Shown: positions 23,587 to 49,079 of the stretch, piece by piece | Layout of the letters: every line of letters begins with the position of its first letter | Numbering within the stretch: the stretch's first letter is position 1 | Origin: Croceivirga sp. | Lineage (GTDB): Bacteria > Bacteroidota > Bacteroidia > Flavobacteriales > Flavobacteriaceae | Reading direction: 5' to 3' | NCBI GenBank assembly: GCA_028281025.1 | Contig: JANQKR010000049.1 | Coordinates: forward strand, 1-64,000 | Length of the DNA stretch: 64,000 nucleotides | Made by a program: the position numbers and the translations under genes | The notes under the pieces: generated by a model | Databases searched by the model: none | Seen by the model: only the letters and a program-made list of their open reading frames with translations | What the model was told of the DNA's origin: nothing

Positions 23587-23984
23587 GATACGTAAGGTTT
23601 TATAGTTAATGAATGATTGATGTTGATGGAGATAACCACACAACTTTCTTGAAATTATATCATCCTTTTCCTATTAAAACTGACAATTATCAGGAACGAC
23701 TATTAAATAATATCTTTATAACTCTGTAGTAATATTTTTTTAATATAGTAGTATTATACCTTCAAAAATGATTTTCATGCGATTCCCAAAAAAGTTCTAA
23801 AACGGGTTTTTTATAGGTATTGGAACGGTTGATAACCGGCTGGAAAGAATACCGTCCCGTGCGGGTATGAACGGATAATGGATAAAGTTTAGGCCATTAA
23901 CATAAGGATTTAGGGCTTATACTGATTGTACACTGGGCAGTAAAGTGGGAACGCAATACGCTTTGCTAACCGCACATGAACGGG

Positions 23985-27800: not shown

Positions 27801-29500
27801 TTTTCTACCAAACGGTTGTGGTGGTCGTAGACATACTGATAGCCCAACTCTGCCATAGCACCATTGATTTCGGCCAAGGTAGCGGTTGTACCTTCCATTT
27901 TGGGGGGCAATACATAGCTAAGGTTGCCAAAATCATCGTAAACATAGTAGGTGTCATGAGGTACGGCAATACTCACCGATTGGTCATTGTGGGTAATATC
28001 GGCAAAGGTCCGTTTCAGCAGTATTCGACCCTGTTTATCCATGAATTCCTCCACACTGTGGTTTTTACCATTGGTATGGTTCTCATCATAGGTAATTGTT
28101 TTGTATAGCTCATTAGGACCAAAAAACTCCTTCCTATTTGTAGCAGGATCGGTATCCAATTCCAGAATAGGCACATAGGTGTTATTGGTAGGGGAAGTTC
28201 CTACGGTGAATAGACGTACATTGTCCGCAGCGGTATTGGTATGGTACCCAAATTCAATTTCGTGACCGGACCCCTTGGCCCAATCACTACCCGGAGCTGC
28301 CTGTTGGAGTATACGGTTTAAAGGAGAGGTTTCAAAGGTCTTTTGGAAATAGGGATTTGGCGAAGCCAAGAGGATATCATCCGGATAGTTGTCACCATAG
28401 TAGGTGTCCGTTGCTGTTTCCGCATCCGATCGAAAACCTCCTATAGCGGCCTGGGAATCCGGATCGGCATAGGGCAGCCATTCCTTTTCCACCCGGCCAA
28501 AGCTATCATAGCCTATATGGGTGACCACATCACCTTTACCTGGGGTATGTCCAATACCCACCTTTTGCATAGGCCTACCCAGTCCGTCATAGTAGGTAAT
28601 GGTTTGGGTAAGAATATCGTTTTGGGTAAAAAATTGGGGATCCACTGCCGTGGTATGTTGTTCTTGGTAGGTTCTGGCATAAACATAATTGTTGCCAGTA
28701 ATGATTCTTGGTCCACAATCATTTGAGGGTTCAGGAATATCCGGACATCTGTCTACCGTAGTACTTTGGGTCCATCCTGTTCCCCTATTGGCACAGTCTT
28801 CTTCCGGAGTACTCCCCGGATCTCGGAATCCATCACCATCGCTATCGGTATACCACACCTTGACTGCGCAATTCTGACTAAAAGAGCCTCCTATACCACC
28901 AGACTGACCATCCGGTCTGGCCCCCACAATAATCACAGATCGAGGGGCCCCTGAATTGTTGGCCTGGAAACTGACATTTACTTCCGTAAGAGTGGGTTGA
29001 GAGACGTTCACCCAGCTTGGCAACGGATTGCCTTGCTCGTCAGTAAAGTCAAAATAAACCTGGGAAGAACAATTGGCATGGGATAGGGTGTAGCTCTTGC
29101 TTTCCCCACCGCTGGCAAAACTACTTCCGGAGAAACCGCTTACAGTGCAAGATGGGGGAGGGGGAGGGGGCGTACCGTCCTGGAAAACTTGGAATCCTCC
29201 GGAAGTACTACCGTTGTATAAAATGGCAATGCCAACAGATCGCTCTTGACCTGCATTGGACTGTACCGTCACCGTAACCTGATTCCCGGATACACTTGTG
29301 GTAACCCAACTAAATGGATTGTAGACAGTAAAAGTGCCTGGTGGGCAATTTTCGATAATCGTGGTCTGTTGGGTACCTCCGGCCTTGGGAAAAGTAAGGT
29401 TATTTGCAGAGATCCCAAAGCATTGGGCATTACCATTGCCAAATGTTCCCAATACAACTAATAAGGCAATTAAAAGTTTTAGTATATGTATATGTTTCAT
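24899..29500 (-). CDS. RHS-repeat protein with BACON-like N-domain and phospholipase A2-like C-terminal tail
   Basis: The protein is 1533 residues from MKHIHILKLL (ATG 29500), with a signal peptide ending in GNGNAQ. A BACON-like beta domain (about residues 30-110, ISANNLTFPKAGG) is followed by a second such region, a calcium-type DSDGDGFRDPG repeat, a DUF6443-like segment (LTQTITYYDGLGRPMQKV), many YD/RHS repeats and the RHS core (YKDHLGNVRLSY and ISDPAIGRFWQVDPLAEDY, to about residue 1297). The last 236 residues are unique to this copy. They contain YSGQGS, then PIDWGDAIAKRHDEDY, then ADLD. This order matches the calcium loop, catalytic His-Asp and Tyr, and helix-3 Asp of phospholipase A2 folds. 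It is probably a secreted or surface toxin encapsulated by the RHS shell. The PLA2 call needs a profile search. Confidence 0.85.
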   Translation of the reverse strand: MKHIHILKLLIALLVVLGTFGNGNAQCFGISANNLTFPKAGGTQQTTIIENCPPGTFTVYNPFSWVTTSVSGNQVTVTVQSNAGQERSVGIAILYNGSTSGGFQVFQDGTPPPPPPSCTVSGFSGSSFASGGESKSYTLSHANCSSQVYFDFTDEQGNPLPSWVNVSQPTLTEVNVSFQANNSGAPRSVIIVGARPDGQSGGIGGSFSQNCAVKVWYTDSDGDGFRDPGSTPEEDCANRGTGWTQSTTVDRCPDIPEPSNDCGPRIITGNNYVYARTYQEQHTTAVDPQFFTQNDILTQTITYYDGLGRPMQKVGIGHTPGKGDVVTHIGYDSFGRVEKEWLPYADPDSQAAIGGFRSDAETATDTYYGDNYPDDILLASPNPYFQKTFETSPLNRILQQAAPGSDWAKGSGHEIEFGYHTNTAADNVRLFTVGTSPTNNTYVPILELDTDPATNRKEFFGPNELYKTITYDENHTNGKNHSVEEFMDKQGRILLKRTFADITHNDQSVSIAVPHDTYYVYDDFGNLSYVLPPKMEGTTATLAEINGAMAELGYQYVYDHHNRLVEKQLPGKGREYIVYNTLDQPIMTQDANQRAANNPNLTTDEWLFTKYDAFGRVAYTGKATSPAGTSRIDVQDQADAISGFPWVEQKNTNRDSEFGEALDIYYNNGAYPNETTLNPKATLTEVLTITYYDSYVNLPSGAPGSITLLGSNPPQSQTSNVQGLPTVARVKVLDVPGTNVWINTLTYYDDKGRPIYTYSKNNYLGTTDITETQLNFVGRALKTRTTHTRLGNTLVTLDNFDYDHMGRLLNHTQCIGDGTLGESCNSTAADTSLIFDIPVTSSRTDVAKASITLRPGFYVVATPGLSYTAKIDPDFAQELIAYNDYDALGQLVRKKVGGTPGTDFATTTGLQTVDYSYNIRSWLTGINDVSNTARLFNFKIVYNQGPSPLYNGNIAETEWKTANTDNGLKWYRYTYDPLNRITSATANSSNYTVSGITYDKNGNLQSLTRKGHTNAEATSFGTMDVLDYDYLNSEVSNRLYKVRDDGNKSHGFVESTDDGQDYWYDPNGNMVRDLNKGIGTASVDGITYNHLNLPAEIKFDNDSNKKISYIYDALGTKIQKVANDNSSLTTTDHVGHFVYENGILQFFSHPEGYVTPNESVGYNYIYQYKDHLGNVRLSYHDANGDDHITVSTDPMITEVVEESNYYPFGLKHKGYNDNSVPPLGNSVAQKYKTFQGQEFTEDLGLNIHEWKYRISDPAIGRFWQVDPLAEDYVHNGVYNFSENRVIDGVELEGLEYVSIHHFANGTVSQTEYYKMSNAQIKRLGGTTAGLHNSAAYGPLGKGVVHYYYNSAGEVTDTYSEILQDDFNSIMGRHGLYSGQGSVTHDGFANSTNYDFTMQPIDWGDAIAKRHDEDYAAAAPDNYLGFLEDTRTLQADLDMVGRIDELVGSFLNPFKKIGVSGVDTPFRTSYSTEMDGSLLGQRMVISSLATYKQWKIDNDLVGNKYYNIPFYHDRFAKAHPGAAQVLDLVVGGTE

Positions 29501-29582
29501 GGTATTCTGTTGTTGTATTATTGGTATCTTATGAACTTTAATTTCCCTGTACTGCAGGGAACAATAAAAAAGAAACGGATTC

Positions 29583-32500
29583 TCATTCTTCAGCTGCATA
29601 GTTGTACTTGTAATCGGTTATGAGGTTCCCCTTATCGTCGCGTACTTCCTGTAATCGGTTGAACACATCGTATATATAGGTCATGGTATACCCCCTGGGA
29701 TCGGTGATACTGGTCACCCCTACCAAGGGATCATAAGTGTAGGTAGTCACCATGGCCTCTGGGAAATTATCCCTAATGGCATTGAGGTGCTCTCTCAAAA
29801 TCTCTTCTTTACAGTTGGACTCCCCGCAGTTATCGTTGTCTTCGTTGGATTTATTTTGAATTGTCAAAAAATCAAAACCCTCCTTTAGATTTAGGTCTTG
29901 GTTGATTTCATCATACGTAAGTGTACTCTCAATTTTGGCGATGGGATGTTGTTTATTGTACCCCCAGAGGTAAACCACATTAGGGCCATCGGTTCTTGAA
30001 ACTTCGAGCGGATTACCCTTATCATCATAGCGATGATAGGTGATTCTGTCCTTTAAGATATCCAATCCTTTTGAAGTCTGTATTATCTCAGGAAGGTATA
30101 ACCCATTGAAATCTTTAAAATTAGTGTTCGTGGCAGATATTTTTCTCTCAACAGCGCTCCCTTGTTCTTTCTTGAACGATTCAGTTTTAATGGGTTCGAT
30201 TATACGATTTTCTGAAATTAACCTGCTTAAATTTAGTTCGTGTGCATACTGCATTTCAGTTTTTAAAATCTCATTGTCGCTATTGGTAGTTTCCACTGAT
30301 GTCGTCAGTAAATGATCCGGGTTATCATGAAAATAGGTTGAGATTTTGTCCACATAGGCTAAAGGGTCACTTTCATCATAAATCCGTTCTGTTGTTTTCT
30401 TTTTAAAAAAGAAATCGTTATTATGCGTGTACACCTCAATATTTATTGAAGATATTTCTTGGGTTTCGACAAAAAAATTGTCGTTTGAATCGATGCCAAA
30501 ACCGAATATGTTTTTAGCTTGATAATTTGCGGGGTCAAACTCATATTCATTTATCAATTCGCTATTCAAAATTCCCGCCTCATTGTAATGTTTTTCATTT
30601 AGAATCAGTCCCCTAAAGTAACTTTGATCAGTTAGGTTAACCGTTGGAGAGGGCCCCCGTCTGCCCCAGGGAATTGCCGTGGACTCCGAATAGGTATAAA
30701 AATCACCTGCATTTACGGACCAGTCCACTCCGCTAGGTTCCCACTCATACCTTAATTTTTCAATATCAGGATTTGTTTCAAAAGAGGTCATATGGTATTC
30801 CGTTCTGCCATTGCCTTCAAAATCGATTGTTACATCAGAATACCGAATCAAGTCTGAGGTCTGTAAATATTTGGGATTCGAAAACCTGGTCACATATATA
30901 TACTTTGTTTCAGGTTGACTAAAATGACCAGTCCATATCGTTATTACCTGTTTTTCAAAGAGTCTTCCGGCAGCGTTATTTTTCCATTGCCGAAGATGTT
31001 GTGGAATTTGACCACTGGATTTTGCTTCATCAGTAGGAAGATGGTATTTATACGTTATGATTTCTTTGTTTCCATTTAAATCATCCCTTGTGATCTTTTT
31101 AATCCTTAATCCCCCGGTTTTTTGGTTTTCACTACCATCCCAATACTCGTTAAGTTCATATTCATATTCAATTGAGCCCTTTGTGGGGTAGATAATTGTC
31201 CGCAAAGCAAAAGTTTTGGCCAATGTCTCGTTCGGAGTCCTATCGGCGCCATCCAAAGTTCTTTCATAAGCATTGTTATGATTTATTTTTGGAATTAGGT
31301 TCCCATATGGATTGGCGTTGTAGTAGCCCCAAAAATCTTGTTTTGGTGAGTTTCGTTCTGGTAATATGTTTTGTTCATTGTATTCAAAAGCGAAACTATC
31401 AAAGCTGTTACCGTCCTTCACTTTTGTGATTTTGTTCAACTTTAATCGCTTCTTTTCATAATCCGGTAAAGTAGGACTGGCATAGCCAAAAAAACGGGTG
31501 TCAAAATTGTATTGCTCCACAATTTGCGTATGGTCATTTAGTAATCGAATTGAGCTGAGGGCTTTTCTGTTGCCGCTATTCTTTAGATCATCCCTGCCAG
31601 TCCCATTGTAGATCAACTCTAAACTACTATCACAAGAACTATTTACTCGAAGCATTCTTTTGGGGGCATTAATAATGTATTGTGTGTTACGGGGTGTTGT
31701 CCTTGAGGTAAAACCGTCATCTCCAGAATGGGGAAAGAAGTCAGGAGGGTTTAATGCGTACACACCTTCATAGCTAGTAGGTACATGAAAATCTTGTTGC
31801 ACATCGGACTTGATGGTGTGCTCCATTTTGGGTAAGGTCTCATATTCATATTCCAACCAATCCCCATTTGGACTTTCCATTCTTCTTAATAACCACTTTG
31901 AAGTATACTCGTTAACATGGATTCCTTCGTTCCTGTCCGGTGTGGGTGAATACCAATCATCATAGTATGGGGTTGTTTCGGTTTCAGTCCTTACCTTTTC
32001 GGTATAATTGGCACTTACGCCAAAATAGAATTTGGTTCCATCACCTGTAGTGATTATCCATTCATTGCTGGCATTTGGACCTATTGCCGGTGAAATCTTT
32101 ATTTCCGGATTATGGGGAATGATAGTTGGGACACCTTCACCATCAAAAACAAATTTTCCAGAATAGCCTTTGATTTTAAAATAAAAAATATCTGGTTCGC
32201 CATCTGCATTCCACGTGGCCCATCCCATTCCACCAAATGCACCTAAGTCCGGAGCTAAGGCACCTAGGACTGGATCTTGAGGCGGTATATACGGTAATGG
32301 CATTACCCTAAAGTAATCGGGGAAAGTATTTGAATTAAAGGAATTTCCCAGCTCTTGTACGCTCTTGGCCAAAAGCTTAGTACTTAAGGGAGTTTTTGGG
32401 ATGGTGTAGATTACGCCCCCCTGAATTGCTCCACCATCAACATCCCAATCAGCAAAGTCGAGCCATCCATTTACCTCTTTATGCGCATTTGGTGAATTAA

Positions 32501-32930
32501 CCAATGTCTCCCCTGGTACCCCCGGAGCCGCATCTGCCCAGATTTTCTGCTCATCGGGAAAACCTTTGACCTCTCGTGTGATATAACCGCCCAGTTGCGC
32601 TTCCCAGCCCAGTCCTATATCACTCGCAATATCATTTATCCTAACTCCCTTTCCATTGATATACCTTAACGTAAATCCATCAGATAGACTTCTGCAGTTC
32701 AGTATGCTCAAGGGGATGCTTGGTTGAATTGTTCCCGTACTAAAATCAATGTTTTTGTCATTTATGGGAAGATTCAAACCTGACACTTCGGGAGATTTGA
32801 CCTTCATATCCGATCCCGTACCATCCCAAAAAACAGAAAACTGTTGGGAAAATCCAAGGTGTAGGGAAAGTAGACCTATAATAAAGGACAACTTTAGATT
32901 ACTTCTTGTTTTACATACAATGTATTTCAT
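29583..32930 (-). CDS. Large RHS partner protein, copy 1
   Basis: The protein is 1115 residues from MKYIVCKTRS (ATG 32930), with a signal peptide ending in LGFSQ. The N-terminal part is a beta-rich domain found also in the second locus copy (GTIQPSIPLSILNCRSLSDG; IASDIGLGWEAQLGGYITRE). The middle carries long extended repeats, and the last 120 residues are YD-type repeats (TYTYDPLVGVTSITDPRGYT, NRLQEVRDDKGNLITDYKYN). The protein looks like the front half of an RHS/TcB-type shell whose remaining repeats and core are in the next gene. A longer frame starts at 32972 inside the preceding fibre gene; the ATG at 32930 gives the proper signal peptide. Whether the two RHS proteins form one shell is inferred. 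Confidence 0.82.
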   Translation of the reverse strand: MKYIVCKTRSNLKLSFIIGLLSLHLGFSQQFSVFWDGTGSDMKVKSPEVSGLNLPINDKNIDFSTGTIQPSIPLSILNCRSLSDGFTLRYINGKGVRINDIASDIGLGWEAQLGGYITREVKGFPDEQKIWADAAPGVPGETLVNSPNAHKEVNGWLDFADWDVDGGAIQGGVIYTIPKTPLSTKLLAKSVQELGNSFNSNTFPDYFRVMPLPYIPPQDPVLGALAPDLGAFGGMGWATWNADGEPDIFYFKIKGYSGKFVFDGEGVPTIIPHNPEIKISPAIGPNASNEWIITTGDGTKFYFGVSANYTEKVRTETETTPYYDDWYSPTPDRNEGIHVNEYTSKWLLRRMESPNGDWLEYEYETLPKMEHTIKSDVQQDFHVPTSYEGVYALNPPDFFPHSGDDGFTSRTTPRNTQYIINAPKRMLRVNSSCDSSLELIYNGTGRDDLKNSGNRKALSSIRLLNDHTQIVEQYNFDTRFFGYASPTLPDYEKKRLKLNKITKVKDGNSFDSFAFEYNEQNILPERNSPKQDFWGYYNANPYGNLIPKINHNNAYERTLDGADRTPNETLAKTFALRTIIYPTKGSIEYEYELNEYWDGSENQKTGGLRIKKITRDDLNGNKEIITYKYHLPTDEAKSSGQIPQHLRQWKNNAAGRLFEKQVITIWTGHFSQPETKYIYVTRFSNPKYLQTSDLIRYSDVTIDFEGNGRTEYHMTSFETNPDIEKLRYEWEPSGVDWSVNAGDFYTYSESTAIPWGRRGPSPTVNLTDQSYFRGLILNEKHYNEAGILNSELINEYEFDPANYQAKNIFGFGIDSNDNFFVETQEISSINIEVYTHNNDFFFKKKTTERIYDESDPLAYVDKISTYFHDNPDHLLTTSVETTNSDNEILKTEMQYAHELNLSRLISENRIIEPIKTESFKKEQGSAVERKISATNTNFKDFNGLYLPEIIQTSKGLDILKDRITYHRYDDKGNPLEVSRTDGPNVVYLWGYNKQHPIAKIESTLTYDEINQDLNLKEGFDFLTIQNKSNEDNDNCGESNCKEEILREHLNAIRDNFPEAMVTTYTYDPLVGVTSITDPRGYTMTYIYDVFNRLQEVRDDKGNLITDYKYNYAAEE

Positions 32931-32937
32931 AGCGGTA

Positions 32938-33780
32938 TTATTGGTTTTCTGATTGTGATACGATCTTATCATGACTTAATTTTTTGGACCTTATTTCAAT
33001 TTGTTTGATTTCTATTTTTTGTATTCTATCTTCCAGTTCGTCCATCTTTTTCTGTTTGTCTTCAAGGGCTAAAATATACAGTGTCAACTCCTCAATCTTC
33101 TCCAGTAGAAGCTTGTTCATTTCCCCCAGTTCAATACCGTTTTCTTCCACTTCTTGGGCAGATGGGATGTTGATAAGGTGGCCTTTTTCCTTGATGTGTT
33201 TTTCCACTTCCTCCAATGAAGGAAGGTCATAGCCCTCTTTAAAGACATAGTCCGCCCAGCCGGTTTCCACTTTGATCTCTTCCGCGAGGATCTTGCCTTT
33301 TACAGCTAGTTTATAGGTGCCGGGATTGGTGGTTCCAATACCCAGGTTGGAAAGGAAATAGGAGTTCGTTTTCCCCAATTCCCAGATTTGCTCAAAATCG
33401 GCAAAGTCCACTTTATCTGTCGAATTGTTCCAGGCATGGTTATACCCTTTAAGCTTTCCATCCACATAATCAAGTTCCATGACCAATGCCGCTCCAGGAC
33501 CCCAATTGGGAACAAACATGTTTTTATTCCCTAAGCTGCCAATATCTCCATAACTACTATAATCCAGAATAGCGTTACTGCCAATCCAACTACTATTGGA
33601 TAGTCCAAAATTTCCTAAGGTCAGGTAAGATCCGACCCGTATTTGGGTCCCTCTGAAATCATCGGTTACCCAATTTCTTTGGAAATAGTGGTATTTACTG
33701 TTCGTCCCTAGGGAATATAACGGAGTTTGAGCGCATACCCATATTGGGAGAAACATGCTCAGTACGATAAAAAACTTCAT
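32938..33780 (-). CDS. Fibre-like secreted protein, array member 7 (last)
   Basis: This 280-residue protein has a signal peptide (MKFFIVLSMFLPIWVCAQ), a unique N-terminal domain of about 120 residues (NSKYHYFQRNWVTDDFRG) and one fibre repeat (LGIGTTNP). The conserved C-terminal module follows in its second variant: LAVKGKILAEEIKVETGWAD, then a GYDLPSLEEVEKHIKEKG stretch and LINIPSAQEVEENG. A coiled coil of about 60 residues ends it, longer than in the other members. It overlaps the previous gene by ATGA (33777-33780) and is followed after seven bases by the RHS partner gene, linking the array to the RHS pair. A surface fibre or adhesin role is inferred. Confidence 0.82.
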   Translation of the reverse strand: MKFFIVLSMFLPIWVCAQTPLYSLGTNSKYHYFQRNWVTDDFRGTQIRVGSYLTLGNFGLSNSSWIGSNAILDYSSYGDIGSLGNKNMFVPNWGPGAALVMELDYVDGKLKGYNHAWNNSTDKVDFADFEQIWELGKTNSYFLSNLGIGTTNPGTYKLAVKGKILAEEIKVETGWADYVFKEGYDLPSLEEVEKHIKEKGHLINIPSAQEVEENGIELGEMNKLLLEKIEELTLYILALEDKQKKMDELEDRIQKIEIKQIEIRSKKLSHDKIVSQSENQ

Positions 33781-34661
33781 TTTCGTAAGTGTTTAATGGA
33801 TTTTTTGATTTCTTCATTTTCCTTTTTTAATGCGATTACATAGAGTGTCAACTCTTCGATCTTTTCCAGTAACAGTTTGTTCATTTCCCCCAGTTCAACA
33901 CCATTTTCTTCCACTTCCTTTGCGGAGGGAATATTGATAAGGCGACCCTTTTCCTTGATGTGTTTTTCCACTTCCTCCAAAGAAGGGAGGTCGTAGCCCT
34001 CTTTAAAGACATAGTCGGCCCAGCCGGTTTCCACTTTGATTTCTTCTGCACGGATTTTTCCTTTTACGGCCAGTTTCCAATTACCTTCAATGGTTTTGGT
34101 CCCTATACCCACATTGCCATTTCCTATATTGATTACAAAGGTGTCCCATCGGTTCCCCCCTTGGGCGGAATGCCATGGGGCAATACCAAATTGGTTTTCC
34201 CCAAAGTTTTCCGAAAATCCCATATCCACACCGATGATATCCCCATCTTGTCGCAGTTGTATCATTGGGTTATCGGCTTCATTGTTGTTATCGGTATCCG
34301 CTTCCAATCTAAAAATGGCGTCCCCCGAAGTTCCACTACTCACATTAAAAAGGCTCAGGGGTGTTGTTGTTCCAATCCCGATAAAACCATTGTTGTCCAG
34401 GGTTATCCCTTTTTCGGGATTGACACCTTTGCTTAAGTGAAATGTTTTTTTCTGGTTATCGATCCATAATCTGGAGGTAATTTCTCCCGAATTTGTCCAA
34501 AAATTAATTCCTTGTTCAGGCCCATTTCCATAGATTTGAAGTTTGCCGTGCGAAGGACTTGTGGTACCTATACCTGCGTTTCCATTAGGTGGGAAATGAT
34601 TTGTTTGCGCATTTATTTGATAGCTAAGTGCACATACCAGTAAGAGCATCATTCTTTTCAT
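33777..34661 (-). CDS. Fibre-like secreted protein, array member 6
   Basis: This 294-residue protein has a signal peptide ending in YQINAQ and three fibre repeats spread along the chain (GNAGIGTTSP, GFIGIGTTTP, GNVGIGTKTI), so most of the protein is probably a trimeric beta-fibre shaft. The C-terminal module is the second variant, shared with member 7 (IKVETGWADYVFKEGYDL, RLINIPSAKEVEENG), and it ends in a coiled coil with LLEKIEELTLYVI. ATGA overlaps couple it to both neighbours. Members 6 and 7 form a subgroup distinct from members 1-5. Confidence 0.82.
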   Translation of the reverse strand: MKRMMLLLVCALSYQINAQTNHFPPNGNAGIGTTSPSHGKLQIYGNGPEQGINFWTNSGEITSRLWIDNQKKTFHLSKGVNPEKGITLDNNGFIGIGTTTPLSLFNVSSGTSGDAIFRLEADTDNNNEADNPMIQLRQDGDIIGVDMGFSENFGENQFGIAPWHSAQGGNRWDTFVINIGNGNVGIGTKTIEGNWKLAVKGKIRAEEIKVETGWADYVFKEGYDLPSLEEVEKHIKEKGRLINIPSAKEVEENGVELGEMNKLLLEKIEELTLYVIALKKENEEIKKSIKHLRK

Positions 34662-35539
34662 TCCATGCGATTTTGAATTAGTTTTTTCATTTCTTCCATT
34701 GATTTTTGTTGTAGGGCCAACTCTTTTTCTATACTGCTGATCTTCGAATTTTTGGCGAACAACAATTCTTGTTGTAAAATCATGTACAAAGTCAACTCCT
34801 CAATCTTCTCCAAAAGCTTCATATTCATTTCGCCCAGTTGAATACCATTCGCCTCCATTTCTTGGGCCGAGGGGATATCGGGCAAATGCCCGTGTTCTTG
34901 AATGTAATTTTGGACTTCTTCCAGGGATTTAAGGTCATACCCCTCCTTAAAGACATAATCTGGTGCGGGGACGGTTAGGTCTACTTGGACCTCTTGGGCA
35001 TGGATATCGCCTTTTACAGCAAGCTTGGCATCCGGAGTAGTGGTACCGATGCCTACATTGCCGGACTTATTTATGGTCATATGGGTAATGGGGTAGTCCG
35101 TTATGGATGGCGAGGTTCCCAAACGCAGATTTCCCCTAACGCCATCAAAACGTACTTCGGCAGAATACTTATTGGGATCTAAATCGGATGTGCCGCTAGG
35201 TTCATAAGAGTGGTAAAAATACAATATGGCATGACCTCCCTGATGAAACGCCATGGAGTTACCAATCTGTAACTTATCCTGTGGGGAGGTTGTTCCAATG
35301 CCAATATTACCACCAGATTGCACGGTCAGCCATTCTTTGGTGGTAGTGGCATCTTCAAACACACCCCAGCGATCACCCATAACCATACCACTGGCCCAAA
35401 CACCGTTGGTTGAATTACTTTGAAATAAGCTGACATTGTTGGGGGAATTTAAAACCAACTTTCGGTAGTTTTCGGTCAAGTCTTGTGCCGTCACTATGGT
35501 GGAAAGCAAAAGTGACAGCATAAGGGAAAGCGTTTTCAT
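34658..35539 (-). CDS. Fibre-like secreted protein, array member 5
   Basis: This 293-residue protein has a signal peptide ending in TIVTAQ, a unique N-terminal part (QSNSTNGVWASGMVMGDRWG) and two fibre repeats (GNIGIGTTSP, GNVGIGTTTP). The constant C-terminal module of the first variant follows: AKLAVKGDIHAQEVQVDL, VPAPDYVFKEGYDLKSLEEV, HLPDIPSAQEMEANG, LGEMNMKLLEKIEELTLY. The DNA of this module is nearly the same as in members 1-4. ATGA overlaps exist on both sides. Confidence 0.82.
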   Translation of the reverse strand: MKTLSLMLSLLLSTIVTAQDLTENYRKLVLNSPNNVSLFQSNSTNGVWASGMVMGDRWGVFEDATTTKEWLTVQSGGNIGIGTTSPQDKLQIGNSMAFHQGGHAILYFYHSYEPSGTSDLDPNKYSAEVRFDGVRGNLRLGTSPSITDYPITHMTINKSGNVGIGTTTPDAKLAVKGDIHAQEVQVDLTVPAPDYVFKEGYDLKSLEEVQNYIQEHGHLPDIPSAQEMEANGIQLGEMNMKLLEKIEELTLYMILQQELLFAKNSKISSIEKELALQQKSMEEMKKLIQNRME

Positions 35540-36594
35540 AGTTTTGTTTTTAAGATTGATTCCAGTTTTTCGAATTTTTCCGCATATTCCCTATTCCTGT
35601 TTTCCAACTCAATTACATAAAGGGTCAACTCCTCGATCTTCTCCAAAAGCTTCATATTCATTTCTCCCAGTTGAATACCATTCGCCTCCATTTCTTGGGC
35701 CGAGGGAATATTGGGCAAATGCCCGTGTTTTTGAATGTAATTTTGGACTTCTTCCAGGGATTTAAGGTCGTAGTCTTCCTTAAAGACATAATCTGGGGCG
35801 GGAACGGCAAGATCTACTTTTACCTCCTCCGTATGGATTCGTCCCTTTACGGTAAGTTTGGCGTCCGGGACAGTGGTACCTATGCCCAGATTCCCATTTG
35901 AGGCCAATCGCATTTTCTCACTGGTACCTGTACCAAAAACTATTTTTCCCTGGGAGCTACTGGCTATAATATTCAATCCATTTACATCACTTCCCGACAG
36001 CCATGTTGAATTTGGATAGGTATACTCTCCCCAATTACCCACATAATTGCCATTGTAGTGTGCGAGAAACCCATAGTTACCGCCAAAAGGCTGCTCCCCT
36101 ACAAGAATAATGGCCCTTGATTGAGGGGAGAGGCTCTCATTCAAAATGTATGCAGATGTGGAGCCATCAAAATTTTTGTTGACCTCCAAGGTTGCATTCG
36201 GGCTGTCTGTTCCAACACCCAATTTTCCTTCAAAAAACCCACTGGCGGATCTGGTGTCAAATACGATTCCAGCTTTGTTGTTAAATGTTGATTTAAACCC
36301 AATCCCAAACCAGGATTCCAGCCCAACATTATACCTGTCAAAAGAAGCATCATCAGCTGTACCACTGGCAAAATATCCGCCAACACGAACATTATTCAGA
36401 GTACCAGAGTTGTTCTGCCCTGTTCCCCTAACATATACCCTTACTTTCTGGTTGTCTCCACTTAGCGAGTGGATATGTAACTTTTCATGAGGATTGGTAG
36501 TACCAATACCTACATCACCATTGGAACTTTCATGAATCTGCCCAAATGTACTTAGCCCTACGAGCAGGTAAAGGGATATTGCTATTCTTTTCAT
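35536..36594 (-). CDS. Fibre-like secreted protein, array member 4
   Basis: This 352-residue protein has a signal peptide ending in LSTFGQ and three fibre repeats (GDVGIGTTNP, GKLGVGTDSP, GNLGIGTTVP) interleaved with two unique beta-rich segments of about 80 residues each. The C-terminal module is the first variant (TVKGRIHTEEVKVDL, then an APDYVFKEDYDLKSLEEV stretch). It ends in a coiled coil with VIELENRNREYAEKFEKLES. ATGA overlaps couple it to members 3 and 5. Confidence 0.82.
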   Translation of the reverse strand: MKRIAISLYLLVGLSTFGQIHESSNGDVGIGTTNPHEKLHIHSLSGDNQKVRVYVRGTGQNNSGTLNNVRVGGYFASGTADDASFDRYNVGLESWFGIGFKSTFNNKAGIVFDTRSASGFFEGKLGVGTDSPNATLEVNKNFDGSTSAYILNESLSPQSRAIILVGEQPFGGNYGFLAHYNGNYVGNWGEYTYPNSTWLSGSDVNGLNIIASSSQGKIVFGTGTSEKMRLASNGNLGIGTTVPDAKLTVKGRIHTEEVKVDLAVPAPDYVFKEDYDLKSLEEVQNYIQKHGHLPNIPSAQEMEANGIQLGEMNMKLLEKIEELTLYVIELENRNREYAEKFEKLESILKTKL

Positions 36595-37586
36595 TTCGAC
36601 CCCATTACTAGTTTTTCAATTTGCTCTTGTTGTTGCTTTTGACGAATTGATAGCTTTTCCAATCTTTCCAATAATTGAATATTGTAAAGGGTCAACTCCT
36701 CAATCTTCTCCAAAAGTTTCATGTCCATTTCGCCCAGTTGAATACCATTGGCCTCCAGTTCTTTGGCCGAAGGAATATTGGGTAAATGCCCGTGTTCTTG
36801 AATATAGTTTTGGACTTCTTCCAGGGATTTAAGGTCATACCCCTCCTTAAAGACATAATCCGGGGCGGGAACGGAGAGATCTACTTTTACCTCCTCTGTA
36901 TGGATTCGTCCCTTTACGGTAAGTTTGGCATCTGGGGTCGTGGTGCCAACTCCTATATTGCCCAAATGATTGACCATAAGGGATGCACCAACATAATTGC
37001 CATCTGCAGGCACCAAGGCATTGGAAAGATTGTTCCCTACAAAAGCATCTTCAATAAGCCATGTCGCTATCACGGCCCTTTCCGCTCCAGAATCCCTGGA
37101 CTGCATTACTTCATAGGCAATATGGTTGGGAAGAGTATTGCCAGTGGATATACCGGAGCCCCTGAATATAGCGGCATATGGTCTTCTGGAACTTGAAGAA
37201 AGTCCGCCTCCCAATTTATATAACCCCAACCTTCTGGCAGCAATCTGTAGTGCCGGTGTTACACTTTCCTCCCAAGCATCGCAAGAGGTCAATATTCCTA
37301 TTTGGGAACGTTTAAGGTCATTGAGTGCACTGGCCAGATTATTAGAAGCAGCGGCATAGCCATAAGTATCATATACCGTTGATGAAATATGTTGGTGATT
37401 GGTGGCATCAATTATGGTAAGGCACAATCCGCGACCATATCCATTTACAACATAATTGCTACCGAGTTTTACGGCCCTAGTGGCATTAAAGTTCAGCCCC
37501 GTTCCCCTAATGTACACACTGGTCTGTGCCTCCAGTTTTAATAGGGTCAAAAAAGTTAAAAGATATAATAGTACGTAATTCTTCAT
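36591..37586 (-). CDS. Fibre-like secreted protein, array member 3, with ILEI/FAM3-like N-terminal domain
   Basis: This 331-residue protein has a signal peptide ending in KLEAQ. The N-terminal about 165 residues differ from all other members and resemble the ILEI (FAM3) domain. VYIRGTGLNFNATRAVKLG is followed by RGLCLTIIDATNHQ, VYDTYGYA, SQIGILTSCDAWEE, an LGLYKLGGG stretch and AIFRGSG: the order of strand, FDTY-type motif, 'I-V-L' strand and RDS-type motif of that family. One fibre repeat (GNIGVGTTTP) and the standard constant C-terminal module follow. ATGA overlaps flank it. ILEI domains bind carbohydrates or proteins in other contexts; here a receptor-binding head is inferred. Confidence 0.8.
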   Translation of the reverse strand: MKNYVLLYLLTFLTLLKLEAQTSVYIRGTGLNFNATRAVKLGSNYVVNGYGRGLCLTIIDATNHQHISSTVYDTYGYAAASNNLASALNDLKRSQIGILTSCDAWEESVTPALQIAARRLGLYKLGGGLSSSSRRPYAAIFRGSGISTGNTLPNHIAYEVMQSRDSGAERAVIATWLIEDAFVGNNLSNALVPADGNYVGASLMVNHLGNIGVGTTTPDAKLTVKGRIHTEEVKVDLSVPAPDYVFKEGYDLKSLEEVQNYIQEHGHLPNIPSAKELEANGIQLGEMDMKLLEKIEELTLYNIQLLERLEKLSIRQKQQQEQIEKLVMGSK

Positions 37587-38395
37587 TTGATTTTCGTTTT
37601 TAAATATTCTATCTCGATTTGTTGTTGAATTATATATAAGGTCAACTCCTCAATCTTCTCCAAAAGCTTCATGTCCATTTCGCCCAGTTCAATACCATTG
37701 GCCTCCAATTCTTGGGCCGAGGGGATATTGGGCAAATGCCCGTGTTCTTGAATGTAGTTTTGGACTTCTTCCAGGGATTTAAGGTCATAGTCTTTCTTGA
37801 ATACATAATCCGGGGCGGGAACGGTAAGGTCTACCTGGACCTCTTCGGCATGGATATCCCCTTTTACGGCAAGCTTGGCGTCCGGGGCAGTGGTGCCGAT
37901 GCCTACTTTGCCGTTATAGGCCAGATAGAGGTCATTTTCCCCATAATTGATCCGTCCAAATTTTGCAGTTTCAATAACGGGATCCCCACCATTGGGCAGT
38001 ACGCCATCAAGAATAACACTCCCTGTCCAGGCCGACTGATCCAAAAACACCTTTAGTTGGGGAATAGCTGCAGTAAAATTGACTTCCAAGTGGGCTTTTA
38101 CCCCATCAGAGCTGATACGGGCTTCTGACCAATGCCCACCGTCACTGAGGGAGACCAGATTGAGCCCTCCATAGGAAGACCATCCCTTAAACCATGAAAT
38201 CTTGGCTACCCTTGGTTGGGAAGCGCCTCCTTGGGTCATCAGGACAACTTCGTTATATCCCCTGCCATAGGCACCATCCAATCGCGCCACCCGTTTCCAT
38301 CCCGGTGCATCAACCTCTACCGTTTTGCTACTATGATATTGTGGGAAAATACATTGGAACATAAGATAGGCTACCAATAGACATACATTTTTCAT
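37583..38395 (-). CDS. Fibre-like secreted protein, array member 2
   Basis: At 270 residues this is the shortest member. After the signal peptide (MKNVCLLVAYLMFQCIFPQY) comes a beta-rich head of about 145 residues (WKRVARLDGAYGRGYNEVVL, LEVNFTAAIPQLKVFLD), one fibre repeat (GKVGIGTTAP) and the constant module (LAVKGDIHAEEVQVDL, VPAPDYVFKKDYDLKSLEEV, LGEMDMKLLEKIEELTLY). The head has the 'RVARL..G.G.NEVVL' pattern seen in some putative receptor-binding fibre tips, but I do not assign a family. ATGA overlaps couple it on both sides. Confidence 0.82.
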   Translation of the reverse strand: MKNVCLLVAYLMFQCIFPQYHSSKTVEVDAPGWKRVARLDGAYGRGYNEVVLMTQGGASQPRVAKISWFKGWSSYGGLNLVSLSDGGHWSEARISSDGVKAHLEVNFTAAIPQLKVFLDQSAWTGSVILDGVLPNGGDPVIETAKFGRINYGENDLYLAYNGKVGIGTTAPDAKLAVKGDIHAEEVQVDLTVPAPDYVFKKDYDLKSLEEVQNYIQEHGHLPNIPSAQELEANGIELGEMDMKLLEKIEELTLYIIQQQIEIEYLKTKIK

Positions 38396-39549
38396 GGCTC
38401 GTTTGCTTTTAAGAGGTTCTCTAATTTTTTTAATCGTTTTTCTTGATGGTGGACCAAATTGTATAAAGCTGCTATTTCCCCATCCTTTAGAAGTAGTTTA
38501 TTCTCCTGTGACAAGAGGTAAAGGGTCAACTCCTCGATCTTTTCCAATAGTTTCATATTCATTTCGCCCAGTTGAATACCATTGGCCTCCAGTTCTTTGG
38601 CCGAAGGGATATTGGGCAAATGCCCGTGTTCTTGAATGTAGTTTTGGACTTCCTCGAGGGATTTTAGGTCATACCCCTCCTTAAAAACATAGTCCGGGGC
38701 GGGAACGGTAAGGTCTACCTGGACCTCTTCGGCATGGATGTCCCCTTTTACGGTAAGTTTGGCGTCTGGGGCAGTAGTGCCGATACCTACACGACCATTT
38801 TGGTGGATTCCGATAAAACCATTTGCCGATTTTAGAAGTAGGCCATAGTATCCCGCCACTTGCACGGCACCCTTATCATGGGTATTGGAGAGGTCCATAA
38901 AATCGCTTCTCCCCAATCCATACCAAGGGCTGGCGTTGGTAAGGTCCGTAATACTTGATAAGGAAAATGTAGTTGCCCGAATACCATTGCCCTCCACATG
39001 CAATTGGGCCAATGGGGTATAGGTTCCTATCCCCACATTGCCACCGAGAAACAGTATTTCATTCGTTCCGTTTTCCACTTTGATCCGAAACTCGCTGAGG
39101 GAAGTACTGAGTCCCATATAGGCTTTTCTGGTGCCATTGCTCGATTTCCAATTGGTATAGAGCCAACTGTCATCACTGGTTTGGAACGTTTGTATGGCAT
39201 CGTAATCACTCACGATATGGAGTGGGGACAATGGATTGCTGTAACCAATACCTACATTTCCCGTATCGTGGTCGATACGCATACGTTCGTTACCCTCTGT
39301 CTTGAACAAAAGGTCGTTGTTATAAGAGGAAAAGGCATTTGTTGTGGTATAGACGTCCTTGTTAAAAATAATATTGGGCCTATCCGTGTAGATATGACCG
39401 TGGGAGCTGTTAAAAGGTCCTATTTCAATGGTTCCGTGATCGGTGGTAAAAGTGTGTTTGGTAGATCCGTTGTAGGTGGCCTGTGCGCTTGCCAAAAAGG
39501 ACAAAAGCAAAGTACCAATGGGCAACATGGCCCGATAGGTTGTTTTCAT
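38392..39549 (-). CDS. Fibre-like secreted protein, array member 1 (first gene of the operon)
   Basis: At 385 residues this is the longest member. The signal peptide MKTTYRAMLPIGTLLLSFLA is nearly the same as the 58-codon stub upstream of the second RHS pair. Three fibre repeats (GNVGIGYSNP, GNVGIGTYTP, GRVGIGTTAP) alternate with unique segments. The constant module and a coiled coil (EIAALYNLVHHQEKRLKKLE) close it. Its stop overlaps the start of member 2 (ATGA). The upstream region 39583-39652 is shared with the second locus and is the likely promoter of the whole run down to 24387. Confidence 0.83.
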   Translation of the reverse strand: MKTTYRAMLPIGTLLLSFLASAQATYNGSTKHTFTTDHGTIEIGPFNSSHGHIYTDRPNIIFNKDVYTTTNAFSSYNNDLLFKTEGNERMRIDHDTGNVGIGYSNPLSPLHIVSDYDAIQTFQTSDDSWLYTNWKSSNGTRKAYMGLSTSLSEFRIKVENGTNEILFLGGNVGIGTYTPLAQLHVEGNGIRATTFSLSSITDLTNASPWYGLGRSDFMDLSNTHDKGAVQVAGYYGLLLKSANGFIGIHQNGRVGIGTTAPDAKLTVKGDIHAEEVQVDLTVPAPDYVFKEGYDLKSLEEVQNYIQEHGHLPNIPSAKELEANGIQLGEMNMKLLEKIEELTLYLLSQENKLLLKDGEIAALYNLVHHQEKRLKKLENLLKANEP

Positions 39550-41925: not shown

Positions 41926-44900
41926 TCAAGGTTTTATTGTATCAGTTCTTATCCGAACATTTTCAAGAATGCTAAATCTAGCAAATCTGGCAGAATCTTT
42001 TTCTGCTTCAGATCTATTACTTCTTGGGATTGCTGAGCCACTACTTAATTCTTTACCAGATAGGTCAACATTACCAGATGTTGTTCCTTTCTTGAAATTT
42101 GCAGTAGCAGTGTGCTGTATATTCAGATTAGACTGATCTGGTTCTGATTTATTTCCCGTTTCCATAGTGTTTCCTGCTGAAGCATTGGTAGCGGCATCAA
42201 CCGAGTTACCAGCATTACTGGCCCTATCGACACCATCCGCAAATGAGCTTGCCGGATTCTTTTTTGACGGATCTTTAGCTGTTGTCATACCGTCGCCTTT
42301 ACTTCCTTTTTTACCACCTGCAACTATTGTTAAGGCCTCTAAGCCCGTAACATTAACTTCTTGAACATCTCCAGTTGTCTTTGTCGCAGTACTGGGATCA
42401 CCAGATGGTTGTCCATCATCGGTAACAAATGAATATCCATCGGAATTACTTACCTGTGATGAAGAAGATGAAGACCCTTCAATCCTAATTGGTTCCATTC
42501 CTAAGAATTTTCTACCAAGATTTATTAAACCAAGGGTAAAGGTGGCTGTGTGGCCTAAAGGGTTTCCTGGTCCAGTTCCACAACAGCCCGTAGGAGCCAT
42601 ACCATCATAATCTTGGAAATAAATAGGGTTGTCAAATCCAAAATTATAAGGTGAATGCCTACGCATCTGTTCGGCCAATGGATCCAAGTTCATCCACCTA
42701 CCCAAAGCAGGATCATAGTTCCTTGCCGTTACGTCATACCAGTTTAGATTAAGTTCTTCTTGGTACTCCTTACCTCCAAATTTCCATCTTTGTGCAACAT
42801 CATTGCCCAAAGCGGTATCACCCCCGTAATTGTACCCTTTATGCTTAAGCCCGAAAGGATAGTAATTGTTTTCCTCAATAATTGTGGGTGTGCCAGGATT
42901 GCTTGGGTCATCGGCATAGGACAATCGTATGTTACCGAGATGATCCTTATATTGGTAGACATAGTCATATCCCCCGCCGTTGGCATTCACATAACCCTCG
43001 GGATGGGAGAAAAACTGTAGGGTACCATTCTCATACACAAAATTCCCAGCATAGTCCGTGGTTGTCAAAGAACCGTTGTCATTGGCCACCTTTTGTACTT
43101 TGGTACCCAAGGCATCATAAATATAGTTGATTTTTTTGTTGTTGTTATTGTCAAACTTTATTTCCCGGGGCAGGTTCAGGTGGTTGTAGCTGATCCCATC
43201 CAAACTGGTCGTCCCAATGCCCTTGTTAAGGTCACGGACCATGTTGCCGTTGGCATCGTACCAATAGTCCTGGTTGTTGGCCGAGCTGTCCTTAAAGCCG
43301 TAGGTTTTGCTGCCCGTATCGTTCACTTTATAGAGGCGGTTGCTCATCTCACTGTTATGGTAATCGTAGTCCAGAATGTCCATATTTCCAAAGGAGGTTG
43401 CCGCAGCATTGGTATGCCCCCTACGGGTCAGCGATTGGAGGTTCCCATTCTTGTCATAGGTTATTCCGCTTAATGAATAGTTACTGCTATTGGCCGTGGC
43501 ACTGGTGATCCGGTTTAAGGGATCGTACGCATAACGGTACCATTTTAGCCCATTGTCCGTATTGGCGGTGCGCCATTCCGTTTCGGCGATATTTCCATTG
43601 TACAATGGGGTACCGCTATGGCCCACGGTATTGTAATTGATGCCAAAGGCAAAAAGGTCCCCGCCCAAATTGGTGGGATCGTTGATCCGCTTCAGCCACC
43701 CCCTAACGTTATAGGCATACCTCACGGTCTGTAGGCCACCGCCCACTTCCTTTTGGACCAATTGCCCCAAATGATCATAGCTGTTGTCCACCAGGGTTTC
43801 CTGGGCCTGTCCGTTAATGGTCTGTTGTTGGCGTACCAACCTCCCTTGATGGTCATAGGTAAAGGTATCCACGGTTACGATATCCGAATGCCCTGTTCGT
43901 TGATGGGTGGCCCTCGTTTGTACCACCTTGCCCCCAAAGTCCAGCTCCGTTTCCACGATATCCGTAGTCTCTAGGTAATTGTTTGCACTTTTTACGTAAA
44001 TGGCACGTCCCTTTTCGTCATAACCCGTGACCGTTGTTATCCATTTCACCGGGCTACTGTCCAACACCTTTACTTCGGTCCCTGTTGCCAGGCCCTTTGT
44101 CTTTTCCGTATTGGCATTGTTGTAATTTACAATGGCCTGCCCTTCATAACCGGATGGTAGATTGCTGAACCAGTCAAAGGCGTAGTCATCGTAGTAGTTG
44201 ATGGTATGGATTTCATCGACTCCTAATGGAATGGACGTACTCGTGTAGTGAATGCTTGTGCCCGCAATGGTCTGGGCCGATGCAATACGTTCCACATATT
44301 GGGTATAGGTAGCGGTATCATTGGCCGCATTCTGCATGGCCGTTCTGGAAGCTGTGCTATTGTGCCTACCCGTAAAGGCCACCCTTCCAAAAGCATCGTA
44401 TTTGGTAAAGAGCCATCTATTCTGTGCACGTAAATTGGCATCTTGGGTCAATACGGGTTGGTCCAGTTTGTTGTATACAATGTATTCCCAGCCCTTGCCC
44501 GGGAGTTTCTTTTCCACCAAACGGTTGCGGTAATCGTACTTGTACTGGTAACAGAGTTCGTTGAGCTCCGTGGCATCCACCCCATCGGAAGCGTCCACCT
44601 TGGGGGGGATCACATAGGTCAGGTTCCCGTAGTCATCATACACATAATAGGTGTCATGGGAGCCGTTGTGGTACGTCCGTTTTAGGATCACCCTTCCGTT
44701 TTTGTCCACAAATTCCTCGGTACTGTGGTTCGTACCGGAGGTATGGTTCTCATCATAGGTCACATTTTTATAAAGTTCGCCGGTGGCATATACCCCGGAT
44801 AGTTTTTGTAGGGTAGGGGCTTCGGGGTTCCCTCCGGTAAAAACGACCTCAAACTTGGGTACGGCATCATTGGATTGGGAATTCACCTGGTATCCAAATC

Positions 44901-45582
44901 CAATTTCATGGCCATTGCCCAGCTTCCAATCCTGTCCCGGAGCGGCCTGTTTCAGTACTCGATTTAAGGGGGAGTTTTCAAATTCCTTTTGGGAATGGGC
45001 ATTGACATTGGGCGTGCTCAGGGTCGTAAAGTCTTCCGCATAGTTCGTCTTATAATAGCCTTGGGTGGCCGAGGCCCTGTCCCCGCGATAGCTCCCCAGG
45101 GAACCAGTGGGTTCATGATAGGGGAGCCACTCCTTTTCCTGGCGGCCATACCCATCGTACTCCATATGGGTAATAATGTCATCCCGGTCCCTGGCAGCCT
45201 TGATGTCCACCTGTTGTAGGGGCCTTCCCAGGCCGTCAAAGTAGGTGATGGCCTCATAAACATCGCCCTCCTTGGTACCAGAGGTGGTAAATGCCGGCAT
45301 GGCCCGTTGAAAGCTGCGTGTGAACACATAGTTCTCCGTACCGCTCAGGGCAATGTCCGTATAGGGTTCATAGGCCGTAGAGGGCAGGACCACAGCGGTA
45401 AAGTCGGCCCCGCTCTGGATAAAGGTATTTGGACTTAGGGTAATGCTCTGCAGATCCGATAGTGTTACGGTCTGCCCGCTCAATACATTATAGTCCGTTT
45501 GTCCCACGGGGGGCATGGTGATTTGGGAAAATACCCATTGACTGACCAAGATGGTGATAACTGTGTTTATATACTTCCCCAT
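41926..45582 (-). CDS. RHS-repeat protein with DUF6443 domain and low-complexity tail, locus 2
   Basis: This 1218-residue protein has a signal peptide (MGKYINTVITILVSQWVFSQ). The DUF6443 region is about residues 75-230 (NYVFTRSFQRAM, ITYFDGLGRPLQQV, EKEWLPYH), followed by YD repeats and an RHS core (YKDHLGNIRLSY; YDPALGRWMNLDPLAEQMRR, then SPYNFGFDNP). The last 225 residues after the core are rich in Ser, Gly, Thr and Asn (GSSSSSSQVSNSDGY) and match no toxin family I know. The shell region is very similar to that of the 24899-29500 gene, but that protein has extra N-terminal BACON domains and a different tail. It follows its partner by three bases. Confidence 0.83.
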   Translation of the reverse strand: MGKYINTVITILVSQWVFSQITMPPVGQTDYNVLSGQTVTLSDLQSITLSPNTFIQSGADFTAVVLPSTAYEPYTDIALSGTENYVFTRSFQRAMPAFTTSGTKEGDVYEAITYFDGLGRPLQQVDIKAARDRDDIITHMEYDGYGRQEKEWLPYHEPTGSLGSYRGDRASATQGYYKTNYAEDFTTLSTPNVNAHSQKEFENSPLNRVLKQAAPGQDWKLGNGHEIGFGYQVNSQSNDAVPKFEVVFTGGNPEAPTLQKLSGVYATGELYKNVTYDENHTSGTNHSTEEFVDKNGRVILKRTYHNGSHDTYYVYDDYGNLTYVIPPKVDASDGVDATELNELCYQYKYDYRNRLVEKKLPGKGWEYIVYNKLDQPVLTQDANLRAQNRWLFTKYDAFGRVAFTGRHNSTASRTAMQNAANDTATYTQYVERIASAQTIAGTSIHYTSTSIPLGVDEIHTINYYDDYAFDWFSNLPSGYEGQAIVNYNNANTEKTKGLATGTEVKVLDSSPVKWITTVTGYDEKGRAIYVKSANNYLETTDIVETELDFGGKVVQTRATHQRTGHSDIVTVDTFTYDHQGRLVRQQQTINGQAQETLVDNSYDHLGQLVQKEVGGGLQTVRYAYNVRGWLKRINDPTNLGGDLFAFGINYNTVGHSGTPLYNGNIAETEWRTANTDNGLKWYRYAYDPLNRITSATANSSNYSLSGITYDKNGNLQSLTRRGHTNAAATSFGNMDILDYDYHNSEMSNRLYKVNDTGSKTYGFKDSSANNQDYWYDANGNMVRDLNKGIGTTSLDGISYNHLNLPREIKFDNNNNKKINYIYDALGTKVQKVANDNGSLTTTDYAGNFVYENGTLQFFSHPEGYVNANGGGYDYVYQYKDHLGNIRLSYADDPSNPGTPTIIEENNYYPFGLKHKGYNYGGDTALGNDVAQRWKFGGKEYQEELNLNWYDVTARNYDPALGRWMNLDPLAEQMRRHSPYNFGFDNPIYFQDYDGMAPTGCCGTGPGNPLGHTATFTLGLINLGRKFLGMEPIRIEGSSSSSSQVSNSDGYSFVTDDGQPSGDPSTATKTTGDVQEVNVTGLEALTIVAGGKKGSKGDGMTTAKDPSKKNPASSFADGVDRASNAGNSVDAATNASAGNTMETGNKSEPDQSNLNIQHTATANFKKGTTSGNVDLSGKELSSGSAIPRSNRSEAEKDSARFARFSILENVRIRTDTIKP

Positions 45583-45585
45583 GGC

Positions 45586-49043: not shown

Positions 49044-49079
49044 AGGGAACGTTCTTCGTTTTGGTTTAGGATTTTAGTT

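What the first reader, a model, noticed from the sequence alone, without database searches (positions are those of the whole stretch)
32938..39549. Seven tandem fibre-like genes, all joined by ATGA overlaps, with variable heads and a constant C-terminal third
Six consecutive junctions (38392, 37583, 36591, 35536, 34658, 33777) are four-base ATGA overlaps, so the seven proteins are translated as a coupled set. Each has its own signal peptide, a different N-terminal head, one to three GIGTxxP fibre repeats, and a shared module (KGxIHxEEV, DYVF, SLEEV, HLPxIPSA, LLEKIEELTLY). At DNA level the module is nearly identical in members 1-5 (about 250 bp each), while members 6-7 carry a second variant. 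Constant 3' parts next to variable 5' parts are a natural substrate for recombination that shuffles heads. Hetero-trimeric fibres mixing different heads on one stalk are conceivable.
Basis: partly seen in the sequence, partly recalled or inferred. Interest (0 to 1): 0.78.

Follow-up and report, generated by a model that had tools for sequence, protein, structure and literature searches.

The report
Recombining fibre-gene array beside RHS genes
A marine bacterium carries a row of seven fibre-protein genes whose shared middle piece is where related species have crossed over, re-pairing different front ends with different tails, so this probable binding toolkit can be reshuffled while the genes stay intact.

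Summary
In detail: seven intact minus-strand genes, six exact ATGA overlaps, unrelated heads, one shared 90-aa module. Corrections: modules 1-5 are 84-90% identical in DNA, not nearly identical, and a variable coiled-coil-like tail follows, so each gene is head-module-tail. An eighth module gene lies at 22570-23643.

Two congeneric genomes carry the matching array with other gene content. In cross-species pairs of matching heads, the gene's own tail is conserved in 4 of 22; in pairs of matching tails, the NEXT gene's head is conserved in 15 of 15. The inherited unit is therefore tail + ATGA + next head, with crossovers inside the module. Silent divergence is higher in modules than in heads in 12 of 12 pairs. 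In a second, more diverged genus the tail-to-next-head link was not recovered (0 of 7).

Of 32 arrays of three or more genes, 28 lie just upstream of RHS-type giant genes or recurring helpers; 20 of 27 T2SS-type secretins lie 2-5 kb from a module gene. M1's shaft matches a Bdellovibrio mosaic adhesive trimer (E=6.9e-11). A role as multi-specific binding fibres is inferred, not shown.

The parts
38392..39549 (-). M1, 385 aa: head H1 with two GIGT-type repeats, module 38518-38787, tail Ta
   Evidence: shaft matches PDB 8ond (bd2133) E=6.9e-11
37583..38395 (-). M2, 270 aa: head H2, module 37634-37903, tail Tb (in G004 and G005 the same head carries tail Td)
36591..37586 (-). M3, 331 aa: head with ILEI domain just under Pfam's cut-off (26.4 vs 27 bits), module 36684-36953, tail Tc; no counterpart in the matching arrays of G004 and G005
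35536..36594 (-). M4, 352 aa: head with PF03903 (100 bits, cut-off 26), module 35617-35886, tail Td; no counterpart head in the matching arrays of G004 and G005
34658..35539 (-). M5, 293 aa: head H5, module 34784-35053, tail Te
33777..34661 (-). M6, 294 aa: head H6, second module variant 33840-34109, tail Tf
32938..33780 (-). M7, 280 aa: head H7, second module variant 33076-33342, tail Tg (different from G005)
37904..38517 (-). example of one inherited unit: tail Ta of M1 + ATGA + head H2 of M2, kept together in own, G004 and G005
29583..32930 (-). 1,115-aa RHS-repeat protein directly after M7 (starts 7 bases after M7's stop)
   Evidence: Pfam RHS_repeat 33.2 bits, cut-off 22; position
24899..29599 (-). 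DUF6443/RHS-type giant protein after it (ORF of 1,566 aa from the first ATG; true start may be later)
   Evidence: Pfam DUF6443 132.8 bits; Rhs_assc_core below its cut-off
22570..23643 (-). eighth module gene, outside the finding's coordinates, single, module 22690-22962
41926..48870 (-). second RHS-type pair (41926-45582 and 45586-48870) upstream; in G004 the counterpart pair lies directly after the fibre array, here that array is absent

Best explanation
The seven genes encode exported fibre proteins, each with its own N-terminal head, a shared 90-aa module and a coiled-coil-like tail. Shown by comparison: homologous recombination between modules of neighbouring or incoming genes re-pairs heads with tails and adds or removes whole units, and because both ends of a unit lie in the module and the ATGA overlap is inside the unit, reading frames and overlaps survive. 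Inferred: the heads are alternative binding tips on trimeric shafts, made from one operon together with the downstream RHS-type giant proteins, and serve a contact-dependent or surface-binding function in which many specificities are displayed at once. Export across the outer membrane by the T2SS-like machinery often encoded beside such arrays is a further inference and does not rest on the window itself.
For: Same locus in three congeners: flanks 95-96% identical up to own 22465, then different content. Head pairs keep own tail 4 of 22 but tail pairs keep next head 15 of 15 (Fisher p=5e-7, pairs not independent); by hand-grouped families, 13 of 15 head families show a tail change and 0 of 9 tail families a next-head change (p=4e-5). 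Head pairs share the previous gene's tail in 15 of 17. One tail type (TLQQQTILEM/ETV...) is attached to three different heads in three species and is followed by the same next head each time. Module dS exceeds head dS in 12 of 12 pairs, e.g. M6 own-G005 head 0.07, module 0.91. Crossover estimates fall at different places in the module. Shaft similarity to bd2133, a solved trimeric MAT fibre (PMC10769870, passages). RHS-type or helper genes follow 28 of 32 arrays of three or more genes versus 6 of 19 shorter runs.
Against: In Flagellimonas and relatives (92 genes, 16 genomes) heads that match kept no tail (0 of 6), but the tail-to-next-head link was also not seen (0 of 7; tail matches only 34-78 nt at 80-88%), so the rule is shown in one genus only. 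Two of 17 head pairs lack the same previous tail. A single switch improved the fit by five or more sites in only 5 of 13 triads; other modules are mosaics or follow one parent almost throughout. Four arrays of three or more genes lack an RHS-type neighbour (L044, L046, L085, L092). Nothing here shows expression, trimerisation, secretion or binding.
Confidence: 0.72

Rival explanations
1. The module is shared only because of purifying selection on an essential folding or anchoring domain; heads and tails diverged in place and no recombination is needed.
For: Module protein identity stays 88-93% among members 1-5 while silent divergence is 0.45-0.85, so selection on the module is real.
Against: Heads of the same ancestry carry unrelated tails in other species while those tails sit on other heads. 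Module dS is above head dS in 12 of 12 pairs, which selection on protein sequence does not explain.
Confidence: 0.05
2. Assembly artefact: short reads joined the wrong halves at the repeated modules.
For: Own and G004 assemblies are in 49 and about 60 contigs, and one G004 array is split between two contigs (L037, L038).
Against: G005 is a single contig and shows the same kind of re-pairing; the longest exact match between genes 1-5 is 53 nt; the same tail-to-next-head links recur in three independent assemblies.
Confidence: 0.04
3. The array is a programmed switch (shufflon or integron-like) in which a recombinase moves units within one strain.
For: Units with repeated borders in one orientation, frame always kept.
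Against: All genes point the same way, crossover estimates are scattered over the module, and no recombinase was recognised among the proteins scanned around the array (not every ORF was scanned).
Confidence: 0.06
4. The fibres are remnants or domesticated parts of a prophage tail.
For: Weak to moderate PHROG tail-fibre matches to GIGT repeats; module relatives at the C-terminus of proteins in viral contigs (15 loci from 514 candidate stretches).
Against: Individual N-terminal hydrophobic starts, no phage structural genes recognised in the window's ORF list, and repeated RHS and T2SS neighbours. A distant phage origin of the module remains possible.
Confidence: 0.08

Closest known systems
Mosaic adhesive trimer (MAT) superfamily of Bdellovibrio bacteriovorus (PMC10769870, outline and passages read)
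   Same: Exported fibre proteins with GIGT-type shaft sequence (M1 and M4 match bd2133 by sequence), one genome with many members, different adhesive domains on a common fibre, evidence of exchanged ends.
   Different: In MATs a ~130-aa N-terminal domain is conserved and the C-terminal tip varies or is an S74 domain. Here the N-terminus varies, the conserved module is near the C-terminus, no S74 domain was found, and the genes form overlapping tandem arrays beside RHS-type genes.
esaG/tipC T7SS immunity gene arrays (PMC9484751, passages read)
   Same: Tandem paralogues that recombine through conserved blocks, giving mosaic genes and gain or loss of the DNA between.
   Different: Those are immunity genes with several conserved blocks. 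Here there is one internal block, secreted fibre genes, four-base overlaps, and a unit out of register with the genes.
rhs C-terminal displacement (PMC2935791, passages read)
   Same: Constant core with exchangeable ends, proposed to move by homologous recombination in the core.
   Different: There the displaced ends become silent fragments. Here every unit is part of an intact gene and the exchanged unit joins two genes.
Bacteroidetes T2SS cluster of Cytophaga hutchinsonii (PMC5553014, passages read)
   Same: Neighbouring pilin, Peptidase_A24, T2SSE and secretin genes as beside many arrays.
   Different: The passages read and a term search (0 hits for Rhs) mention no fibre array or RHS partner.

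Membership tests
MAT superfamily | shaft sequence related to solved MAT fibres | tested here: inconclusive
   M1 6.9e-11 and M4 1.5e-6 to bd2133; M3 0.073 only; M6 none at 0.1; M2 head none at 1; M5 and M7 not searched
MAT superfamily | conserved ~130-aa domain right after the signal peptide | tested here: not met
   N-terminal heads of the seven are unrelated over most of their length
MAT superfamily | variable C-terminal tip or S74 domain | tested here: not met
   C-terminal module conserved; no S74 hit at E<=1 in Pfam for the seven
MAT superfamily | trimeric fibre | not testable with these tools
   structure prediction failed and was then switched off
Pfam PF03903 Phage_T4_gp36 | score above the curated cut-off | tested here: inconclusive
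   met by M4 (100.3 bits); M1, M2, M5 below 26 bits; M3, M6, M7 no hit
Tandem-paralogue homologous recombination (esaG type) | mosaic genes with switch inside a shared block | tested here: met
   head and tail of different ancestry joined at the module; switch positions, clear in 5 of 13 triads
Tandem-paralogue homologous recombination (esaG type) | gain or loss of the DNA between the recombining copies | tested here: met
   H2-Td in G004 and G005 versus H2-Tb, M3, H4-Td here
Site-specific shuffling (shufflon/integron) | fixed crossover site | tested here: not met
   estimated switches at nt 0-42, 135-154 and 214-255 of about 270
SpvB/TcB-type protein (name recalled; PF03534) | SpvB domain in the downstream partner | tested here: not met
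   no PF03534 hit at E<=1 in the window partner 29583-32930; present (38 bits) in the partner of another array, L080
T9SS substrate | C-terminal sorting domain | tested here: not met
   no Por_Secre_tail hit in the seven in Pfam or NCBIfam; a neighbouring 159-aa protein in L080 has one

The most novel reading that the evidence does not exclude
Marine Flavobacteriaceae possess an unrecognised delivery or capture system: a minimal T2SS-like exporter, a periplasmic helper (Skp/OmpH-like or T9SS-tailed), a giant RHS-type protein, and a recombining array of up to ten fibres that supplies interchangeable binding tips, several specificities at once, with the exchange unit deliberately out of register with the genes so that every exchange gives intact proteins.
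Probability: 0.3. Interest if true: 0.85.

Novelty: new variant of a known kind. Interest (0 to 1): 0.62.

Why it matters
It shows a simple way to keep a set of multi-domain surface proteins both intact and reshuffled: put one conserved block inside each gene, join the genes by overlaps, and let recombination act block to block. It also links three things that are usually studied apart (tail-fibre-like adhesins, RHS-type giants and a Bacteroidota T2SS-like cluster) and offers clear tests of what the heads bind.

Tried and rejected
Replication in Flagellimonas and relatives: too diverged; 0 of 6 matching heads kept the tail and 0 of 7 matching tails kept the next head. I fetched loci from 16 of the 30 genomes with matches (13 plus three already held), picked for several module copies.

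Module against solved structures: nothing credible (best E=0.4). Pfam and NCBIfam have no family for the module. Annotated phages: 13 records match the GIGT part of M1, none covers 80%.

In my scripts the labels SpvB and SpvBup mean only 'best blastp hit to window 29583-32930 or 45586-48870 at E<=1e-6'; Pfam finds an RHS repeat but no SpvB domain in the former, and the latter was not scanned. I had first thought of them as SpvB proteins from their layout (recall).

Another genus with arrays (G060) holds one genome only, so no comparison was possible. Literature: nine searches of an open-licence library listed no title or abstract describing such arrays; subscription papers are not covered. TANFOR polymorphic toxins (PMC7073777, outline and section 9 read) and the polymorphic-toxin survey (PMC3482391, passages) were considered; no TANFOR-type family hit was returned for the 1,753-aa partner in NCBIfam at E<=0.01.
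Full report
What is there. Seven intact genes on the minus strand, 39549 down to 32938, are joined by six ATGA overlaps. Each protein has a hydrophobic start (by eye), a head not shared with the others, one to three GIGT-type repeats counting the one in the module, a 90-aa module (GIGT...EELTLY) and a tail of 16-45 aa. In DNA the modules of members 1-5 are 84-90% identical, members 6 and 7 are 84% identical to each other and 65-71% to the first five. The tail is as variable as the head; over 160 distinct tails the hydrophobic residues show heptad-like spacing (lag 7 z=14.0). So the gene has three parts, and the constant part is internal.

How common it is. The genome holds 26 module copies: the seven, a single one at 22570-23643, an array of nine on C37, three in a row on C1, a pair on C26 and four singles. 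Seven of 11 genomes of the genus have at least one at E<=1e-10 (26, 23, 27, 4, 2, 1, 1 copies; four have none), 17 of 60 sampled family members at E<=1e-20 (own included), and 30 of 60 in the genus of Flagellimonas aquimarina at E<=1e-30. One congener, G004, has a contig of the same length (462,555) as WNKP01000003.1, 'Flavobacteriaceae bacterium GF1'.

The comparison between species. The window's locus has counterparts in G005 (L039/L040) and G004 (L101/L035/L036): one flank is 96.3% and 95.3% identical up to own position 22465 and then stops matching in both. Beyond it the content differs. Own: H1-Ta, H2-Tb, H3-Tc, H4-Td, H5-Te, H6-Tf, H7-Tg. G005: a truncated H1-Ta, H2-Td, H5-Te, H6-Tf, H7 with another tail. 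G004: H1 with another tail, a new head with Ta, H2-Td, H5 with a Ta-like tail. Matching heads in this locus are 91-98% identical in DNA, while tails are either 96-98% (90-94% for the Ta copies of G004) or unrelated.

The rule. Over all 71 module genes of own, G004, G005 and G008 in the fetched loci, I took pairs from different genomes with related heads (at least 75% identity over half the shorter head): 4 of 22 have the same tail. Pairs with related tails (85% over 80%) whose genes are both followed by another module gene: the next head is the same in 15 of 15. Conversely the gene before a matching head has the same tail in 15 of 17, the two exceptions being the two least similar head pairs. 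Pairs are not independent; by hand-grouped families the contrast is 13 of 15 changed against 0 of 9 (p=4e-5). The unit that is inherited together therefore runs from one module to the next and contains the tail of one gene, the ATGA overlap and the head of the next. A tail of the second array is attached to three different heads in own, G004 and G005 and is each time followed by the same next head.

Where the crossovers are. In 13 triads of recombinant and putative parents the best single switch lies at nt 0-42, 135-154 or 214-255 of the roughly 270-nt module; it improves the fit by five or more sites in 5 of 13, and many modules look mosaic. Silent divergence between orthologues is higher in the module than in the head in 12 of 12 pairs. 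Both point to general homologous recombination and gene conversion among modules rather than a fixed site. By silent divergence of heads own and G005 (0.07-0.18) are closer than own and G004 (0.24-0.35), and G004 and G005 share H2-Td; so the simplest reading is that the own lineage gained two units (Tb-H3 and Tc-H4) inside the module between H2 and Td. Heads related to M3 and M4 stand side by side in a different array of G005 (L042; 83% over 84 aa and 48%), the first of them in a broken frame.

The neighbours. In the window the array is followed at once by a 1,115-aa RHS-repeat protein and a DUF6443 giant. Across the fetched loci, 28 of 32 arrays of three or more genes with a visible 3' end have such a gene or a recurring helper within three same-strand genes, against 6 of 19 runs of one or two (p=1e-4; 5 of 18 and p=3e-5 without one cut copy). 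Left out: viral loci, duplicates of the same place, and one continuation of a split array. The four exceptions are L044, L046, L085 and L092. Partner classes differ: RHS-type pairs; a 159-aa protein with a T9SS sorting domain plus a 2,205-aa SpvB/FG-GAP/RHS protein (L080); or an OmpH/Skp-like protein, a 207-aa protein and a 1,753-aa protein without Pfam or NCBIfam match (L027). Classes at other loci rest on blastp to these references.

A T2SS-like cluster (T2SSE 434 bits and secretin 123 bits above cut-off; pilin, Peptidase_A24 and PilN matches below cut-off) lies divergently beside 10 of the 32 arrays, among them the C37 array of this genome, not the window array. Starting from the secretin, 20 of 27 full-length secretins in two genera lie 2.2-5.1 kb from a module gene (the module list was cut off, so 20 is a lower bound). 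In 60 Flagellimonas-type genomes module and secretin co-occur (19 both, 11 module only, 4 secretin only, 26 neither; p=1.4e-4). A T2SSF gene lies on C37 about 35 kb away.

What it works like. M1 and M4 match bd2133 of Bdellovibrio by sequence (6.9e-11 and 1.5e-6), a solved trimeric fibre of the MAT superfamily (PMC10769870, passages). M3, M6 and the M2 head gave nothing convincing, M5 and M7 were not searched. The fibres work like MATs in having different ends on a common shaft, but the defining conserved N-terminal domain is not there and the orientation is reversed, so I do not file them as MATs. The exchange works like that of esaG arrays (PMC9484751, passages).

Limits. The rule is shown within one genus; in Flagellimonas and relatives it was not recovered (0 of 7), probably because tails have diverged too far, though I cannot exclude a different dynamic there. 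Expression, export, trimers and ligands are untested. Start codons were taken mechanically, so head lengths are approximate.

Noticed in passing
window 41926-49814: The upstream RHS-type pair matches, at 90.9%, the pair that directly follows the fibre array in G004, and its upstream leader (48981-49814) matches the array leaders of G005 (86.5%) and G004 (81.7%, 404 nt); here no array lies between leader and pair, as if it had been lost.
   Followed up: partly
window 49480-49578: 22-bp tandem repeat, 4.5 copies, upstream of the second RHS-type pair.
   Followed up: no
window 36591-37586 and L042, L075: M3's head has an ILEI-like domain just under the cut-off; a similar-looking head stands in a G060 array (L075:6263-7243, by eye) and a broken relative in G005 (L042).
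   Followed up: partly
L066-L074: Viral contigs encode proteins ending in a version of the module's second half (DYVF/DYVY...LLEKIEE...LY) with a short tail, several beside a similar small gene.
   Followed up: partly
L027:8771-9337, L076, L079, L081, L083, L091, L038, L042: An OmpH/Skp-like gene and a 207-aa protein recur together directly after arrays; possibly a dedicated periplasmic chaperone.
   Followed up: partly
L040:4779-5174: In G005 the M1 counterpart is an open 131-aa gene in which the head is fused in frame to the second half of the module.
   Followed up: partly
window 41001-41918: Small gene after the upstream RHS-type pair with a weak MORN_2 match (23.6 bits, cut-off 29.6), in the position of an immunity gene.
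   Followed up: no
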